64,000 nt of DNA from Candidatus Gastranaerophilales bacterium (GTDB taxonomy: Bacteria > Cyanobacteriota > Vampirovibrionia > Gastranaerophilales > Gastranaerophilaceae): assembly GCA_944323685.1 (NCBI GenBank), contig CALUTJ010000006.1, positions 1 through 64,000 of the forward strand. Direction: 5' to 3'. Of this stretch, positions 25 through 50,218 are shown piece by piece. The notes under the pieces were generated by a model. That model was not told the DNA's origin, ran no database searches, and saw only the letters and a list, made by a program, of their open reading frames with translations. The position numbers and the translations under genes were made by a program. Numbering within the stretch: the first letter of the stretch is position 1; every line of letters starts with the position of its first letter.

Positions 25-67
25 CTTATTGAGAATCTTTTTTGTGTCCTTGGTTCTCCCCTCTCGT

Positions 68-92
68 AAAACAAGACATTTAGTCTTGTTTT
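68..92. other. 10-bp perfect hairpin inside a structured intergenic block
   Basis: AAAACAAGAC / GTCTTGTTTT with loop ATTTA. It sits inside a CCTC...GAGG pairing (about 58-108) and between two look-alike terminators. No open frame explains the block at 25-125. It could be a short non-coding RNA or a small palindromic repeat. Confidence 0.45.
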
Positions 93-125
93 CCTCGGCA
101 GAGTGAGGCGTGGCACCACTTTAAA

Positions 126-152
126 GAAAGCTCTCAAAAATTGAGAGCTTTC
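126..152. terminator. terminator-like hairpin (copy B)
   Basis: Perfect 12-bp stem GAAAGCTCTCAA / TTGAGAGCTTTC with a 3-nt A loop, followed by TTATATAAA. Nearly the same sequence as the hairpin at 1-24. If 25-125 is transcribed rightward, this would be its terminator. Confidence 0.5.
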
Positions 153-632: not shown

Positions 633-1481
633 TTAAATTTTGTTTTTAAAAAATTCACCAATGAGATTGTAATGTTGTGCCAGTTCAATAACTTCTGCGT
701 TTTGCGGCATCATCATTGCAATCTTTTTTGTTTGAACGAGTCTTGTTTTGTAATTATTTGTTTGACTCAGTATATCATCTTCATTACAGCCTAAAAGCTG
801 CATTTTTGCACGCATATAATATGGTATTGGCGAATGGCTTCCTTCGGGCGGAAATGCTCCGAAGAAAATGTTTTCTATGCCGAATTCTTTAAACAATTGG
901 ATTGCCGCAAGTGCTGTTTTTTTGCCTGCATTAAAATATCTTTTCGGCTCACTGTTTGCGTAACCGCCGATAATTGTCACATAATCACGGTCTCTTTGTG
1001 TCGATTCAACAATACTTTTGACCGTCTGCGGCTCAAGAACACCGTTATAAAAAACAGGAAGCTTATTTTTGTCTATTACTTTAAACTTTATAAAAGCGAT
1101 ATAATCTTCTTTGTTAAGGTTATCAATTGCATTATCTGCATTAACGCACACTACCCTGTATTCTCTGCCGTGTTTAGTCAGGGCTAAAATAGCGTTTATA
1201 TCCTTTTTTATGTTTTTGTCGTAAACCTTTAACGTTGCGAGAATTGCTGTATTGTCATTAACAAGGTCTTTGGGTTTTAGTTGTTGAATAAAAGAAGTAA
1301 CTGGGGAATATGTGATTTTGTTGGCTTGAAGAATGTTTTTTATCGATTCTTTATCTACCCACATTTTCTGTAAGGAGAAATCACCTTTAAAGCTTATATC
1401 TTTATTTGTTTTGTTTGCAGAAGATGCTTTGTAATCAAAACTATGCATAAGCATGCCTGCGTTAAGTTTAGATATGTGCAT
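633..1481 (-). CDS. FKG-motif protein with GNAT-like C-terminal half
   Basis: 282-aa protein I do not recognise as a whole. Residues about 27-33 carry the ISFKG motif shared with several other hypothetical proteins in this window, after a polar N-terminus that does not look like a signal peptide. The C-terminal half has a pattern resembling an acetyltransferase fold: an A-G-K-K-T-A-L-A helix start, a following strand (IENIFFGAF) and P-Y-Y-M-R-A-K-M-Q-L-L-G where GNATs have Y-Y-x-x-x-G-F. The GNAT reading is weak because the acetyl-CoA loop is not canonical. RBS AAAGGAA precedes the ATG. Convergent with trxA and divergent from the RiPP-like locus. Confidence 0.7.
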   Translation of the reverse strand: MHISKLNAGMLMHSFDYKASSANKTNKDISFKGDFSLQKMWVDKESIKNILQANKITYSPVTSFIQQLKPKDLVNDNTAILATLKVYDKNIKKDINAILALTKHGREYRVVCVNADNAIDNLNKEDYIAFIKFKVIDKNKLPVFYNGVLEPQTVKSIVESTQRDRDYVTIIGGYANSEPKRYFNAGKKTALAAIQLFKEFGIENIFFGAFPPEGSHSPIPYYMRAKMQLLGCNEDDILSQTNNYKTRLVQTKKIAMMMPQNAEVIELAQHYNLIGEFFKNKI

Positions 1482-1645
1482 ATTTTTTCCTTTGTTTATA
1501 TAAGTTTAAAAATATTAAATTTTGCTACTATTTGCATAACAAAAAATTGTATTTTAACTGCTGTTGAATTATACTTGTCTCGGACTTGGTGAGAACCTAA
1601 AGTTGCGTATTTATAAAGATTAAAACCGAAAAAGAAAGGACAATT

Positions 1646-1855
1646 ATGCAAGTTCCCAGAATCAGATATCAATCTGTAAATCCTTTTATTAAAAATGCAT
1701 CTAAATATGCTGAAAAATTTGAATCAAAAGCACAAAAGGCTTTGCCAAAAGAATTTAATGCTAACACTGTTAAGACTGAAAACAAGCAAATGAGAAGACT
1801 TGATTTTGAATGCGGTGAAGGCAATAACTACGAATACTTTATACATCTTGCATAA
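1646..1855 (+). CDS. candidate RiPP precursor peptide
   Basis: 69-aa protein with no recognised domain, encoded directly in front of a radical SAM/SPASM gene. Its stop codon overlaps that gene's ATG (TAATG), so translation is probably coupled. The basic, Lys-rich first 50 residues could serve as a leader. The C-terminus is compositionally different, with E55-C56-G57-E58-G59-N60-N61-Y62-E63-Y64 followed by FIHLA. E58-x-x-x-Y62 has the same spacing as the Glu-Tyr pair cross-linked in PqqA, and there is only one Cys, which argues against a multi-thioether sactipeptide. RBS GAAAGGA precedes the ATG. The precursor role is inferred from position. It could instead be an unrelated small protein of the FKG type. 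Confidence 0.6.
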   Translation: MQVPRIRYQSVNPFIKNASKYAEKFESKAQKALPKEFNANTVKTENKQMRRLDFECGEGNNYEYFIHLA

Positions 1856-3033
1856 TGCAAAACAGTTATATAAAAACCTGCTTTGATTTTGTTTTTCTTA
1901 AAAAGAAAGATATTGCCGCAACAGGTTTTGAAGCAAAATTCAAACAATTTATTCCGGAAGGCTACGAGTTTAGCCTTCCTTATCAACTTTTTTTTAAAGT
2001 TACATCTGCGTGTAACCTTCGTTGTAAACACTGTTTTTATAACGGTGACGAAAATGCATATTCTCCGGCCGGTGACCTGAACCCTCAAGAACTGGTTGAC
2101 CTTGCACGGTATTTTGTTGATGAAATCAACATCACAAATGTCACAATAACAGGCGGAGAACCTTTTTTGCAAAAAGGAATTTATGATATCTTAGCGGTTT
2201 TTGCACAAAACAACCTTTATATAAACATCATAACCAATGCAACTCTCATAGATTCTATAGCTGCAAAAAAGTTGGCGGAGCTGCTTAACCCTAAAATCTC
2301 TGTTTTTAGCGTGAGTCTTGACGGTGTGACAAAAGAAACACACGAAAAAATACGAGGTAAAAACTCTTATGACAGAGCTGTGAACGGAATAAAAGAACTT
2401 ATAGCGGCAGGGTTTAGCGTTATACTGAATTATACTGTTACGACAGAAAACGTGTCAGAACTGCCATTGCTTTATGATTTTTGTAAAAATTCCGGCATAA
2501 ATAAATTAGGTTTAAACCGGCTCGAAGCTGATAAAAACTCGCCTTTGATTCCTGACTTAAATGACGTTTTTAAATACACAGCAATGTTAATAGAAAAAGC
2601 ACGCAAAGACACGGCATTTACGCTCCAAAACACCGGTCTTAAAACAATAGATTTTCTTAAAAATGATGAGGGGGCGAAACTTTTAAAAAACTTACATATA
2701 GATGAGCTTCCGGCCGGGGCTTCTCTCAGATGTCATTGCGGCCAAAGGGTTGAAATTTGTGCGGATGGCAAAGTATATCTCTGTTCTGCGGCAGAAACAG
2801 ATGCATTGTGTCTTGGCTCGCTTAAAAATGAAGATTTTGAAACTCTCTGGGGTAAAAGAAAAAATAACCCTCTTTTTAAAGAAAGAGAACTTAAAAATTC
2901 AGTTTGCAAGAACTGTAAATATGTGCCTTTATGCAAAGCAGGCTGTATGGCCAAGGCCTACAAAAAATATGGCTCAATAGATTGCTCCGGCGATGACTGC
3001 TTAATATCAGGATACGGGGGCTGCAATGGATAA
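1855..3033 (+). CDS. radical SAM/SPASM peptide maturase
   Basis: 392-aa enzyme. The radical SAM [4Fe-4S] triad C-N-L-R-C-K-H-C is at Cys53, Cys57 and Cys60, followed by the TITGGEP motif near residue 100. The C-terminus (about residues 285-390) is a SPASM domain with many Cys (CGQRVEIC, KVYLC, SVCKNCKYVPLCKAGC, CSGDDC), expected to bind auxiliary Fe-S clusters. Such enzymes modify ribosomally made peptides (PqqE, mycofactocin, sactipeptide and ranthipeptide maturases). The start overlaps the stop of the 69-aa gene, and the end overlaps the PqqD-like gene by 8 nt. The domain call is firm; the substrate is inferred. Confidence 0.9.
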   Translation: MQNSYIKTCFDFVFLKKKDIAATGFEAKFKQFIPEGYEFSLPYQLFFKVTSACNLRCKHCFYNGDENAYSPAGDLNPQELVDLARYFVDEINITNVTITGGEPFLQKGIYDILAVFAQNNLYINIITNATLIDSIAAKKLAELLNPKISVFSVSLDGVTKETHEKIRGKNSYDRAVNGIKELIAAGFSVILNYTVTTENVSELPLLYDFCKNSGINKLGLNRLEADKNSPLIPDLNDVFKYTAMLIEKARKDTAFTLQNTGLKTIDFLKNDEGAKLLKNLHIDELPAGASLRCHCGQRVEICADGKVYLCSAAETDALCLGSLKNEDFETLWGKRKNNPLFKERELKNSVCKNCKYVPLCKAGCMAKAYKKYGSIDCSGDDCLISGYGGCNG

Positions 3034-3310
3034 AAACACCGTCTTGATTTTTTCTGATACTGTTTTAAAACGTTATGAAGAGCCATTGAACACGATATTT
3101 TTATATAATGTCGAAAATGACACTATCTGGGCAGGCAACAGTGAATCATTTGCAGTCCTTGCGCTTGTTGACGGACAACATTCCATTGAACAAATATCTT
3201 TTGAGTTGCACAAAAACTATCCTGAAACAGATTTTGAAACAGTGTACAACAGCGTATATGAGATTTGTAATTCTCTTTATATCAAAGGTATCGTCAAACT
3301 AAAACGTTAA
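3026..3310 (+). CDS. PqqD-like protein (RiPP recognition element)
   Basis: 94-aa protein with PqqD-family layout: an N-terminal beta segment, a central N-S-E-S-F-A-V-L-A-L-V-D-G segment matching the 'lN..a..iw.llDG' pattern of PqqD, then I-E-Q-I-S-F-E-L-H and a helical C-terminus. PqqD-like domains bind leader peptides and hand them to the partner radical SAM enzyme. Overlap of 8 nt with the upstream SPASM gene points to a single operon. Only 7 nt separate it from the convergent 949-aa gene. No transporter or protease gene follows, so export would have to be encoded elsewhere. Confidence 0.75.
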   Translation: MDKNTVLIFSDTVLKRYEEPLNTIFLYNVENDTIWAGNSESFAVLALVDGQHSIEQISFELHKNYPETDFETVYNSVYEICNSLYIKGIVKLKR

Positions 3311-3317
3311 TACGGTT

Positions 3318-6167
3318 TTATTTTTTTATTGCCTGTTCTTTGTTTGGAACCTGTGTCTGTGCAATAGTCTGTATTTGCGTTTGAGCTTGAGGTGTACGCT
3401 GTGACAGAACTTTTTTGCCGGTTAATCTGGACATAAACCTGAAGAAATCACCAAGCAGACCTTTTCTTGTTACGTTGTTATACTCATTTTCAAGTATTTC
3501 GTCTCTGGTTTGAGGCGTTACAGACATACCTATAGCTTTTCTGTTTACATATTCACCTACGAGAGTCGATGCTGTGTTAACGGCCTGAGCACCGAACAAG
3601 CTTGAGTTATAAAGGTTTCTGAAGGTGTTGTTAAACAGTGATATAAACATTACATTGTAGAACTGTCTTGAAGTTTCCTGAACTGCTCTTTCTTTAGCTT
3701 TTAATACAGCACCTTTCTTGTTTTCACCGTTTGATTTTTGCATAACCATGTTGTGGTTGTCAGTCATCAAGAACCATGCCGTAGCCGCAGTAGAAGTGTT
3801 TTTGGCAAGAGCCGAAAGATCCGAGTTGGAAAGGCTCGACATTGTTGCGGTGTTAAAGCCTTTGTTAAACTGCAGGTTCATATATTTTGCAAAATCTTCT
3901 TTGTTGTAATCAATTTTTGCAATACCCTGATGCGGTCCAAACATCGGCGGCAGTTTTATTATAGGATCTTTAGTCATTCTCTTAACAGCCTGGGCAACCA
4001 TTTCGGTTTCTTTAGGCCATTGCGGAAGTTTTACGTCCGGTTTTATTAATTTTGAAATCGGTTTTGCAATATGTTTGTATGGAAGTGTAATTGTGCCCCA
4101 TATAAACTTGAAGGGTTCTGCAATAAAGTCGGCAAATTCTTTCACAATTGGTATGCGTTTTCTGCCTAACGAAAGCATATCCGCATTAACTGAATTTTCT
4201 ACAGTATCAGCAAATCTTTGTGCTTCCTGAGGATTAATTTTTCTTAGTGCACTTATTGCTTTTTCAAAGAGTTTTAGATTTTCTGCGCCGGAATCTACTT
4301 TGAATCTGTTTTCAAAAGTAAACGCATAATCTTTTGCAATATCGTTGATAAGTTTTTTGGCTTTAGTGTAGTTTTTGCCGATAATATTGCCGTTATTATC
4401 AAGAATAAGTGATTTTATTTGATTTGCTTGTTCTTCAAGATTATTAGCCTTCATTGTTTCGAAGAGTTCATTGAGGTTGTCAGCTATAACCTTTTTATCT
4501 CTGGAAGAAATAAAAGCAGCTGCATCGTTGTAAACACCGATGTTTCTGAAGGAGTTATTCTGTTTTAAGTTTGAAATGTGTTCAAAACTTTTTGCGTAAT
4601 CTTCCAATCCTGCGTCTTTTAGTACAGTAGAAAATTCTTTGGAAATGGAATTAACTTTATTAGTTTTTTGCTGGTTTTGAATAACCCTTTCAAAATAGCT
4701 GCCTACAACTTCATCGTATTCTTTCAGCTTGTTTATAACTTTATTGTAATCGTGTTTAGAAATCTTATAATCAACTGTGGTCAAAGAGTTAAAGGCTTTG
4801 TCGTATTTGCTTGAAAGAACTTTGAAGTAATCATTTATTTTGATATTTTTAGCAACTTTCAAACCTTTTGCGGATTTAAGCGCAAATCCCAAAGCAATTG
4901 TGCCGACAAACCATTTAGCCAGTGAAGAGAAGGTAAGCAGTGGTTTTGACTCGTTAACCGCTTTTAATTTTTCATCAATAGATTTACCTGACATGTTAAC
5001 ACTGCTCATCTGTGCTAAAGGCATATCTGCCATTGCAAAGCTGCGAAATACTTTAGAACCTTTAAAGGTCGGGATATAAGCTGCTGTTTTATCATCGGTC
5101 TTATTGTCTGCCGGCGGCTGATAATCTGCTGGGAGAAGGCCTTCTTTTTTGTTCATTTCAATGGCTTCTTCCTTGCTTATCATGTGTATTTTTTTACCGT
5201 TTGATAATCTTGAGAACGCTTCGGTAATAAGTACGCTCAACGCCGTTACACCGACAAAAGTAGCCTTGCTCTTGTTAATCCATTTAGAAAGAGCTCCAAG
5301 GGTAATCAACTGTAAGTACGCGTTTGAAAGAACACGTTTGGTTTCCTGATTAAAACGGAGTTTTCTTTCTTTATCAGCCTTTTGCGGATCATCATCACAT
5401 AATCTGGAAAGGTTGTAGGCATCATTAGCAAGGAAATATGCAGGGATAAAGCCTGTGACAATTCTTGTTAAGGCTCTTTCATGCACTGCGTTGTAATTGC
5501 CTGATTTAGGGTCGAACATTTTTAAAGCGTTCGACATCAAACCGGCAGAACGAACTTTGTCGGAATCGTGTTTGTATTTTTGAGCAGATTCCATATAACC
5601 GATAAAAGAATTGACAATATCAGCGTTATCAAGCGAGTTTAACTTTTTCTTTAAAAAGTTCCGGTTAGCACTGTCAACTGTTTGTTGCGCTGTTTTTGCG
5701 GCATTTTTACCGGAAAAAGAAGTTTTTAACGATTTAAAAATACGAAAAGGAATTTCCGTAATCGGGGCGGCCATTGCATCAAGCAATTGTTTAGTCCAGT
5801 TTTTCTCTTTTATAACAACTGTACTGTCGTTTTGAGCTTTAACAATGTGTTGTGCAATTTCTCTCCATTCGCTTGTGTTTGCTTCAAGCTCAACAGGCGC
5901 CTTGCCGATATATTTTTCAAGCATCTTTAAACTGTCAACAAGGTTATATTTGTGCTCGTTGTACAAAGCAAAAGATTTTTTTAGCTTATCAGCCGATATC
6001 CCTTTAAAAGAAACGCCTTTAAAGGAAGAATTAGCTGACTCTCTCATTAAAGGCGTTTGTTTATTATAATAATTATTCTTAGAAAGTTTATCTTTTGCCA
6101 CAAAAGATTTTGGCTTGTGGCTAAGGTGATCTCGTTTTATAATGTTCGGTTTTTGATTTACTATCAT
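3318..6167 (-). CDS. very large FKG-motif protein, lineage-specific hypothetical
   Basis: 949-aa protein from the start chosen here, the ATG preceded by AGGGCAGG; an upstream in-frame ATG at 6218 would add 17 residues. Around residue 50 it has a doubled motif, SSFKGVSFKGI. It lacks a signal peptide but has several hydrophobic stretches: near IVTGFIPAYFLAN, ATFVGVTALSVLI, KWFVGTIALGFAL, and a C-terminal ATAAWFLM. Between them are long Lys/Asn-rich, probably helical segments. The C-terminus is Gln/Thr-rich (QTQIQTIAQTQ). No catalytic motif is visible. It may be a membrane-associated or secreted protein; I cannot assign a function. Confidence 0.75.
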   Translation of the reverse strand: MIVNQKPNIIKRDHLSHKPKSFVAKDKLSKNNYYNKQTPLMRESANSSFKGVSFKGISADKLKKSFALYNEHKYNLVDSLKMLEKYIGKAPVELEANTSEWREIAQHIVKAQNDSTVVIKEKNWTKQLLDAMAAPITEIPFRIFKSLKTSFSGKNAAKTAQQTVDSANRNFLKKKLNSLDNADIVNSFIGYMESAQKYKHDSDKVRSAGLMSNALKMFDPKSGNYNAVHERALTRIVTGFIPAYFLANDAYNLSRLCDDDPQKADKERKLRFNQETKRVLSNAYLQLITLGALSKWINKSKATFVGVTALSVLITEAFSRLSNGKKIHMISKEEAIEMNKKEGLLPADYQPPADNKTDDKTAAYIPTFKGSKVFRSFAMADMPLAQMSSVNMSGKSIDEKLKAVNESKPLLTFSSLAKWFVGTIALGFALKSAKGLKVAKNIKINDYFKVLSSKYDKAFNSLTTVDYKISKHDYNKVINKLKEYDEVVGSYFERVIQNQQKTNKVNSISKEFSTVLKDAGLEDYAKSFEHISNLKQNNSFRNIGVYNDAAAFISSRDKKVIADNLNELFETMKANNLEEQANQIKSLILDNNGNIIGKNYTKAKKLINDIAKDYAFTFENRFKVDSGAENLKLFEKAISALRKINPQEAQRFADTVENSVNADMLSLGRKRIPIVKEFADFIAEPFKFIWGTITLPYKHIAKPISKLIKPDVKLPQWPKETEMVAQAVKRMTKDPIIKLPPMFGPHQGIAKIDYNKEDFAKYMNLQFNKGFNTATMSSLSNSDLSALAKNTSTAATAWFLMTDNHNMVMQKSNGENKKGAVLKAKERAVQETSRQFYNVMFISLFNNTFRNLYNSSLFGAQAVNTASTLVGEYVNRKAIGMSVTPQTRDEILENEYNNVTRKGLLGDFFRFMSRLTGKKVLSQRTPQAQTQIQTIAQTQVPNKEQAIKK

Positions 6168-6218
6168 TTTTCCTGCCCTTATGTACTTTCGCATAAGAAT
6201 GAAGGTTTTGCAATCCAT

Positions 6219-48674: not shown

Positions 48675-48775
48675 GTTCCTAATATTAATTTTTCTTAACA
48701 GTTGCACAATAAAAAGGCAAAAAATTTTATTTATTGACTTATACAAATGGCAACAATAAAACGAGGTTTACACTA

Positions 48776-50218
48776 ATGAGCGTTAATAAAATAACAACAT
48801 ACACACCTGTTTATACAAACAGAGATTGTCCGAGAAAAATTCGTGATAAGGAGCAAAGCGACGTGAACGAATTTTTGGAGTGTCACAATGAAAAGGTGAG
48901 CAGTGACGGCTCGAAGGCTCGAGGCGGCAACTGCGACACTAGATTAGATAAAAATGCGCTTTCTTTCAAAGGCGGCAGGGCAAATATTTTAAAATATGCA
49001 CTTAGCACGAATCCGTTATATGATTCAGCGGTTTTTACCGGGAAGATTGCACGTTTCTTAAACTTAAGAAGAGGAGAGGTTGCACAATATTCGTCTAAAC
49101 TGAAAAAACACAAGATGCCTCTTTTATACAGTCTTGCTGAAAAATTCAACACAGATTCTTTTTACAATAAATTAACAGATGCGCATCAGGATAAAAAGCT
49201 TGTTTTTGATATTTACAATAAAATAAAATATCCGCAGAAAGCACATTTAAGGCTTATCAACGATACGAATTATTCTTTTGAGCAATTAAACAATATCATA
49301 GACTTAACAAATAACGCACCTGAAAAGCTTTCTCTTGCAGATAATTTGCTTTCAACTTATCCGTCTAAAAATAAATCAACGCTCGGGTATGAAGTTCTTG
49401 AAAAGTTTTTGAAAACGGATTCGTCTAAAGAAATTGCACAACATTATAACGATTACAGGCCATATATAGAGCTTAATACAAAAAATAGCTTTGTGGTTGA
49501 AGATCTTGAACAAGAAATCAAAAAAGGCTATGACAAGGCTTTTTATGCAAAAAAACTTGATATAACAAACCTTATGAGTTATGAAGGTGTTGCTTCTGCA
49601 TTGTCACCACAGTTTTTGCAAGAAAATTATAATAAATTCGGTATTGCGCTTTTAAAAAAGGCAAATATTGCATATGCAGGTAATTATAATATGCAATCAC
49701 AAAACATATCAGACTTGCAAAAAGAGCTTGCTTTTATGTATAAAAGCACAACTGCCGGCAACATGAATATCAGAAGCCTTATTCTAAACTTTGTTGAAAC
49801 AAAATTTGGTCTGAATGACAAATTTCAAAAAGCGCCTTTAAAATCAATTAACAAGGTATTTGAGGTAATTGACAAAGATAAAGAGGCACAAAAGTTTGTA
49901 TATAACTCATTAAAAGCACAAATGCCGTTTGAATCTGTTGAACAGATTGTCCGAACTCTTGAAAGCGCTGATTTGAAAAAGCTTAACAGCAGAATGGATC
50001 TGGTTGAATATGCACTATTAAATAAAATGAATCTTGATGAACTTTCAAAATGCGAATTTTCCGAACTTGACAAACATTTAAAACGTAAAAATCGCAGAAT
50101 GAAAAGGGAACTTGAAAAATCGTATTGCCCGCCCAATCCTTTTGCAGCTGATATTCACAATCTGAAAGTAAAATTTAACGGATTTATAGACAGACTTCGT
50201 GATAAATTTAATAAATAA
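48776..50218 (+). CDS. FKG-motif protein with repeat-encoded N-terminal segment
   Basis: 480-aa hypothetical protein. The ATG chosen has CGAGG upstream; a TTG at 48734 is in frame but lacks one. Residues ~18-58 are encoded by an inverted, internally deleted copy of the 177-nt repeat. The FKG motif (A-L-S-F-K-G-G) follows directly at about residues 61-67. The remainder is Lys/Asn/Leu-rich and apparently all-helical, with no signal peptide or transmembrane helix, ending in a basic segment (KHLKRKNRRMKRELEK). The repeat-derived segment is Cys-, Arg- and Gly-rich, unlike the rest. Function unknown. Confidence 0.75.
   Translation: MSVNKITTYTPVYTNRDCPRKIRDKEQSDVNEFLECHNEKVSSDGSKARGGNCDTRLDKNALSFKGGRANILKYALSTNPLYDSAVFTGKIARFLNLRRGEVAQYSSKLKKHKMPLLYSLAEKFNTDSFYNKLTDAHQDKKLVFDIYNKIKYPQKAHLRLINDTNYSFEQLNNIIDLTNNAPEKLSLADNLLSTYPSKNKSTLGYEVLEKFLKTDSSKEIAQHYNDYRPYIELNTKNSFVVEDLEQEIKKGYDKAFYAKKLDITNLMSYEGVASALSPQFLQENYNKFGIALLKKANIAYAGNYNMQSQNISDLQKELAFMYKSTTAGNMNIRSLILNFVETKFGLNDKFQKAPLKSINKVFEVIDKDKEAQKFVYNSLKAQMPFESVEQIVRTLESADLKKLNSRMDLVEYALLNKMNLDELSKCEFSELDKHLKRKNRRMKRELEKSYCPPNPFAADIHNLKVKFNGFIDRLRDKFNK
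48828..48949 (-). repeat. interspersed repeat, copy 4: 122 nt, inside a coding sequence
   Basis: Inverted relative to copies 1-3. Both ends are intact (GTCCGAG... to ...AGATTAGAT), but 55 nt are missing in the middle, including the GTGAAGCC/GGCTTCAC hairpin. The surrounding reading frame passes through it without a stop. Confidence 0.93.

What the first reader, a model, noticed from the sequence alone, without database searches (positions are those of the whole stretch)
1646..3310. Compact RiPP-like locus: 69-aa peptide, radical SAM/SPASM enzyme, PqqD-like protein
Seen: three overlapping genes (TAATG junction, then an 8-nt overlap). The second has C-x-x-x-C-x-x-C plus a Cys-rich SPASM tail and the third has a PqqD-like pattern. 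Known: this trio is the minimal core of several RiPP pathways (PqqA-E-D, mycofactocin). Inferred: the 69-aa protein is the substrate. Its C-terminus has E58-x-x-x-Y62, the same spacing as the PqqA Glu-Tyr cross-link, and just one Cys, so it does not match classical sactipeptides. No transporter or protease is adjacent, so the product may stay inside the cell.
Basis: partly seen in the sequence, partly recalled or inferred. Interest (0 to 1): 0.78.

Follow-up and report, generated by a model that had tools for sequence, protein, structure and literature searches.

The report
Gut-bacterial modified-peptide cassette, cysteine cores

Summary
The three genes are real and the substrate inference holds. 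The 69-aa gene is very probably a RiPP precursor (a ribosomal peptide modified after translation). Its partners are an unnamed radical SAM/SPASM enzyme and a PqqD-type leader-binding protein (RRE), whose predicted fold matches leader-bound lasso-peptide RREs and PqqD. The host is a Gastranaerophilales bacterium; 18 of 383 sampled family genomes carry such cassettes. Fourteen precursor types mostly share a leader 'LP' motif but differ greatly in their C-terminal cores. What persists is cysteine: all 14 have one in the last 25 residues. The PqqA-like E-x-x-x-Y is not a family feature, so a cysteine-based cross-link (thioether) is likelier than a PQQ-type Glu-Tyr bond.

New: the divergent neighbour (633-1481, minus strand) has a predicted GNAT (N-acyltransferase) fold. 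Its family is single-copy and beside the cassette in 13 of 20 cassette genomes; elsewhere only a decayed remnant and one weak unlinked relative appeared. Its divergence tracks that of the SPASM enzyme (r = 0.97). Hypervariable cores and patchiness suggest a competition or signalling peptide rather than a cofactor. Chemistry, leader removal, export and bioactivity are untested.

The parts
633..1481 (-). Divergent 282-aa GNAT-fold protein, cassette-specific partner
1482..1645 (.). Intergenic region between divergent GNAT-fold gene and precursor; presumed to hold both promoters (no promoter signal above chance)
1646..1855 (+). 69-aa RiPP precursor
1742..1750 (+). Leader motif LPK (residues 33-35), shared with most precursor types
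1811..1852 (+). Probable core region CGEGNNYEYFIHLA (residues 56-69) with the single Cys56; invariant in three species
1855..3033 (+). 392-aa radical SAM/SPASM enzyme
2011..2034 (+). CNLRCKHC radical SAM cluster motif (residues 53-60)
   Evidence: invariant cysteines in 22 homologues
2731..3000 (+). SPASM region from C293 to C382, seven invariant cysteines
3026..3310 (+). 94-aa PqqD-type RRE (leader-binding protein)

Best explanation
This is a RiPP cassette of Gastranaerophilales: precursor, SPASM enzyme, RRE and, in most subtypes, a GNAT-fold partner. The 69-aa precursor is brought by its N-terminal leader, through the stand-alone PqqD-type RRE, to the radical SAM/SPASM enzyme, which modifies the short C-terminal core. 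The likeliest chemistry is oxidative (-2 Da) coupling of the core cysteine (C56) to a nearby residue, for example Glu58, giving a thioether ring of ranthipeptide or sactipeptide type. The GNAT-fold protein most likely acylates the peptide (at the N-terminus after leader removal, since the core has no Lys) or protects the producer. The product is more probably an antagonistic or signalling peptide than a cofactor. Shown: genes, homology, co-occurrence, RRE fold, conserved Cys, co-divergence. Inferred: the bond, the role of the GNAT-fold protein, leader removal by a protease encoded elsewhere, and bioactivity.
For: Precursor, SPASM enzyme and RRE go together in about 20 genomes of the order, in two gene orders and, in G246/G299, as natural PqqD-SPASM fusions. 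PqqD-type genes at E<=1e-6 occur in 8 of 191 family genomes, all of them cassette genomes. The RRE model (pLDDT 96) matches leader-bound lasso RREs (Z about 12) and PqqD 5sxy (Z 10.5). All 14 precursor types have Cys in the last 25 residues (4 of 10,000 shuffles reach this) and 28 of 33 Cys lie there. The SPASM profile's best solved relatives include the thioether synthases SkfB and CteB, besides anSME, SuiB and PqqE. PapB, a SPASM enzyme, joins Cys to Asp/Glu over 0-6 residues (PMC9413430); the window core has C-x-E. GNAT-fold gene: single copy beside the cassette in 13 of 20 cassette genomes; distance correlation with SPASM 0.97, 0.92 dereplicated. GNATs acylate other RiPPs (PMC9505594, PMC10373908).
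Against: No bond can be seen from sequence. The SPASM enzyme scores about equally with ScmE, MftC, AhbD and StsB and reaches no curated cut-off. The window core keeps E-x-x-x-Y. Seven cassette genomes have no detectable GNAT-fold gene (at least two are on short contigs). The GNAT-fold protein lacks a clear Q/R-x-x-G-x-G/A CoA-binding signature (by eye), so it may not be an active acyltransferase. No exporter or protease family is linked.
Confidence: 0.62

Rival explanations
1. PQQ-like chemistry: the SPASM enzyme links Glu58 to Tyr62 by a carbon-carbon bond and Cys56 is incidental.
For: E58-x-x-x-Y62 has the PqqA spacing and is invariant in three species; PqqE also uses a stand-alone PqqD (PMC8326336).
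Against: The spacing occurs in only 2 of 14 precursor types while Cys is in all; PqqE score 73.8 against a cut-off of 381; cores are hypervariable, unlike a cofactor precursor.
Confidence: 0.13
2. Another radical modification of the core (epimerisation, C-terminal decarboxylation, Cys- or aromatic-based C-C or C-O coupling, hydroxylation), with Cys kept for a different reason such as binding the SPASM cluster or forming a disulfide after export.
For: The SPASM enzyme scores with maturases of many chemistries; cores are rich in Tyr, Trp, Phe and several precursors end exactly in Cys.
Against: No single other residue is shared by all cores.
Confidence: 0.2
3. The GNAT-fold gene is not part of the peptide system; it is a neighbour kept by chance or by shared ancestry.
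For: Absent from 7 of 20 cassette genomes; the profile was built from cassette neighbours; genome ancestry also makes distances correlate.
Against: Single-sequence search finds it only with cassettes or as a remnant; adjacency in 13 genomes from 5 genera, several loci unrelated in flanks; G353/G019 cassettes of different genera keep their matching GNAT-fold genes.
Confidence: 0.12
4. Not a secreted peptide: the modified 69-aa protein stays in the cell as a modified protein or cofactor carrier.
For: No exporter or protease family recurs nearby.
Against: Hypervariable cores and patchy presence are unlike a conserved intracellular cofactor; housekeeping proteases and exporters serve other RiPPs.
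Confidence: 0.2

Closest known systems
Ranthipeptides / sactipeptides (freyrasin PapA/PapB, thermocellin CteA/CteB, SkfA/SkfB)
   Same: SPASM or twitch radical SAM enzyme acting on Cys-bearing C-terminal cores of a leader-bearing precursor; SkfB and CteB are among the best solved relatives
   Different: RRE is a separate protein (or N-terminal in two fusions), one core Cys in the window, no six-Cys pattern, chemistry unknown
PQQ (PqqA-PqqE-PqqD)
   Same: Precursor, SPASM enzyme and stand-alone PqqD; E-x-x-x-Y in the window peptide
   Different: Not PqqA or PqqE by curated models; E-x-x-x-Y not conserved in the family; hypervariable cores; GNAT-fold partner
Mycofactocin (MftA-MftB-MftC) and SynChlorMet (ScmD/ScmE/ScmF)
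   Same: Compact precursor/PqqD-like/SPASM sets; these SPASM models score highest (109-113 bits)
   Different: Scores far below the cut-offs of 265 and 400; no matching precursor end
GNAT-tailored RiPPs (selidamide phaeornamide PhaN; goadsporin GodH)
   Same: A GNAT-fold protein encoded with a RiPP precursor (PMC9505594, PMC10373908)
   Different: Those go with other modifying enzymes; here the partner is SPASM plus PqqD, the GNAT-fold sequence is highly divergent and its catalysis untested

Membership tests
RiPP biosynthetic system | Small precursor gene strictly linked to the modifying enzyme | tested here: met
RiPP biosynthetic system | Leader-recognition element (RRE) | tested here: met
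   Z 12.3 (2.1 A over 85 residues) to 6jx3 and 12.1 to 5v1u; PqqD 5sxy Z 10.5
RiPP biosynthetic system | Peptide is modified and its leader removed | not testable with these tools
   Needs expression and mass spectrometry
Radical SAM/SPASM peptide maturases | CxxxCxxC and SPASM cysteines | tested here: met
Ranthipeptide / sactipeptide | Cys in the core of every precursor | tested here: met
   14 of 14 types
Ranthipeptide / sactipeptide | Sulfur-to-carbon thioether made by the radical SAM enzyme | not testable with these tools
   Only mass spectrometry or NMR can show it
Ranthipeptide / sactipeptide | Maturase belongs to a named sacti/ranthi family | tested here: inconclusive
   StsB 104 bits against a cut-off of 625; PapB and AlbA models match homologues but are not among the window protein's best 25
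PQQ biosynthesis | PqqE equivalog score | tested here: not met
   73.8 bits, cut-off 381.35
PQQ biosynthesis | PqqA-type precursor with conserved E-x-x-x-Y | tested here: not met
   no model match; spacing in 2 of 14 types only
Mycofactocin | MftC score and C-terminal Val-Tyr precursor | tested here: not met
   109 bits, cut-off 265; peptide ends HLA
SynChlorMet cassette | ScmE/ScmF score | tested here: not met
   113 and 109 bits, cut-off 400
GNAT superfamily (gene 633-1481) | GNAT fold | tested here: met
   best matches are nearly all GNATs or the related acyl-homoserine lactone synthases (Z 8-9, about 3-4 A over 130-170 residues); scores moderate, model pLDDT 74
GNAT superfamily (gene 633-1481) | CoA-binding Q/R-x-x-G-x-G/A signature and acyltransferase activity | tested here: inconclusive
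   no clear signature by eye; activity not testable here

The most novel reading that the evidence does not exclude
A new RiPP class, so far seen only in Gastranaerophilales, in which an unnamed SPASM clade with a separate PqqD-type RRE cyclises hypervariable Cys cores and a dedicated GNAT-fold enzyme acylates the cyclised peptide; cassettes move between genera like bacteriocin loci.
Probability: 0.33. Interest if true: 0.75.

Novelty: new variant of a known kind. Interest (0 to 1): 0.57.

Why it matters
Gastranaerophilales are mostly uncultured gut relatives of cyanobacteria, and no RiPP from them was found in the open-access papers searched. A conserved enzyme set that goes with at least 14 very different core sequences is a natural test of how tolerant a SPASM/PqqD pair is. 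The linked GNAT-fold protein would be an unusual partner for a radical SAM RiPP system. The precursor table gives direct, cheap predictions (C56 modified, E58/Y62 spacing not the rule) that separate thioether from PQQ-type chemistry.

Tried and rejected
PqqA-like cross-link as the family rule: rejected, spacing not conserved. A named family: no NCBIfam cut-off is reached by the window SPASM protein. Spread on phages: a single-sequence scan of viral contigs found no relative. Promoters and terminators: nothing above chance. GNAT-fold gene in every cassette: not so, 13 of 20 genomes; contig ends may explain some (G411's contig is 3 kb, G348's ends shortly beyond the precursor). Sequence search of the GNAT-fold family against solved structures: no match, hence the fold search. 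A spliceotide-type reaction (PlpX/PlpY) was considered because of the stand-alone RRE, but the window core has no Tyr-Gly.

Full report
Observation. The three ORFs exist at the stated coordinates with the stated overlaps. The middle one is a radical SAM/SPASM protein with the CNLRCKHC motif and seven SPASM cysteines invariant across 22 homologues. The third matches PqqD only weakly by sequence (10 of 18 homologues hit PF05402, best 3.6e-7), but its AlphaFold2 model (pLDDT 96) is a clear RRE: Foldseek's best matches are TbiB1 bound to lasso leader peptides, and VIA-align gives Z 12.3 (2.1 A, 85 residues) to lasso B1 6jx3 and Z 10.5 to PqqD 5sxy. The first ORF is under strong purifying selection: dN/dS is about 0.1 in three congeneric species and the last 14 codons show synonymous changes only.

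Host and spread. The named records with the closest homologues are Candidatus Gastranaerophilales. In the whole-genome collection the window-type precursor was found only in the window's genus (G194 added). SPASM homologues at E<=1e-40 occur in 19 of 383 genomes of the order, and a profile finds 18 of 383 family genomes from 7 of 41 genera: a patchy accessory trait. The 20 cassette genomes used below are the union of these two searches. G353, of the window's genus, carries a cassette closest to that of G019 from another genus, so types have crossed genera or have been kept differentially. In G072 the thioredoxin gene is followed by only the 3' end of the neighbour gene, so a cassette was probably lost there.

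Precursors. Reading the small ORFs next to each SPASM gene gives 24 precursors of about 14 types. These ORFs were picked by position and by eye, not by a blind rule; a C-terminal Cys was not a formal criterion but could have influenced the choice. Most share a leader motif LP[KAS] near residues 20-42 (LTP or RP in some). The cores share almost nothing but cysteine: CGEGNNYEYFIHLA (window), CGAPFANRNCGIWL, CGSDFACSLLY, CSDYEPIDYCSPLFP, CGCEDWCTALLNF, CSDFCMEVVG, CSESYSIEAPDLYSC, CDGVWGITC, CGIDQCAI, and three tandem repeats of ADSCGGMMSWSTHTAPVQAKK in G252. All 14 types have Cys in the last 25 residues (4 of 10,000 within-peptide shuffles reach this); 28 of 33 Cys lie there (no shuffle reaches it). 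E-x-x-x-Y occurs in two types only. Gene order varies (precursor-SPASM-PqqD or precursor-PqqD-SPASM), two loci have PqqD fused to SPASM, and G322/G329 have two SPASM genes.

Fourth component. Clustering of neighbouring proteins shows one clear recurrent family besides the cassette itself: 13 of 23 loci carry a homologue of the window's divergent 282-aa gene. A profile finds exactly one copy in 13 of 20 cassette genomes, always beside the cassette (a gene of about 590 aa lies between in G019 and G353). In control samples (117 family genomes; 194 class genomes) it hits, outside cassette genomes, only the G072 remnant and one weak unlinked gene in G141. The profile was built from cassette neighbours, which favours this pattern, but a single-sequence search with the window gene alone also found only cassette genomes and the G072 remnant, including a 24%-identical gene beside the G059 cassette. 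Pairwise distances of this family and of the SPASM enzyme correlate at r 0.97 (0.92 after dropping near-duplicates; none of 5000 permutations reached it), as strongly as SPASM and PqqD; shared ancestry of the genomes contributes to both. The model (pLDDT 74, best part above 90) matches GNAT N-acyltransferases and the related acyl-homoserine lactone synthases. Z of 8-9 alone would be modest; the support is that the lists consist almost wholly of GNAT-fold proteins.

Mechanism. Known for the families: PqqD-type RREs bring the leader to SPASM enzymes (PMC8326336), and SPASM enzymes such as PapB join Cys to Asp/Glu with a spacing of 0-6 (PMC9413430). Inferred here: the RRE presents the leader, the SPASM enzyme oxidises the core and couples C56, plausibly to E58 (C-x-E), with loss of 2 Da. 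The GNAT-fold protein may acylate the peptide; GNATs do so in goadsporin and selidamides, and as the window core has no Lys, the free N-terminus after leader removal would be the likelier site. Its CoA-binding loop is not canonical, so a non-catalytic or immunity role remains open. Variable cores and patchy distribution argue against a cofactor and for a competition or signalling peptide; this is inference. No exporter or protease family recurs around the cassettes, so leader removal and export, if any, rely on genes elsewhere. The window's left flank ends 308 bases before the thioredoxin gene because the contig starts there.

Comparison. The SPASM enzyme reaches no NCBIfam cut-off (ScmE 113 of 400, MftC 109 of 265, PqqE 73.8 of 381, StsB 104 of 625), and the precursor and GNAT-fold proteins match no relevant Pfam model; the precursor matches no NCBIfam model either. 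The locus works like a SPASM/RRE RiPP system; by the tests made it is not PQQ, mycofactocin or SynChlorMet; ranthipeptide or sactipeptide status needs chemistry. No open-access paper found describes RiPPs in this lineage; subscription papers could not be searched.

Noticed in passing
L154:8652-8990 (G252): A precursor with three tandem copies of ADSCGGMMSWSTHTAPVQAKK, as if one peptide carried three core units.
   Followed up: partly
L136:1942-5128 and L137:6798-10013 (G246, G299): Two adjacent natural fusions of PqqD-type RRE and SPASM enzyme (524-529 aa) behind one precursor that ends exactly in Cys (WEARYRQC / WDSAYRQC).
   Followed up: partly
L019:2978-3464 (G377): Two tandem near-identical precursors differing mainly in the core (CSESYSIEAPDLYSC and CSDNYFHEAPDLYSC).
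   Followed up: no
L155:7042-8829 and L157:10536-12308 (G019, G353): A gene of about 590 aa lies between the cassette and the GNAT-fold gene in both genomes; possible extra component of that subtype.
   Followed up: no
window 633-1481, 3318-6218, 48734-50218 and neighbouring loci: Several proteins of these genomes carry an N-terminal stretch ending in an F-K-G-like motif after a start such as M-x-I-x-x-I; possible sorting signal, resembling some precursor N-termini (MEVSKVSFG).
   Followed up: partly
L173:3887-4171 (G246:C49): An orphan PqqD-like gene with no SPASM gene beside it on a 5.7-kb contig.
   Followed up: partly
window 41-141: Short repeated stretches ('aaagctctcaaaa...tgagagctttctta') upstream of the thioredoxin gene match several places near the same gene in G072 and G194 (blast pieces).
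   Followed up: no
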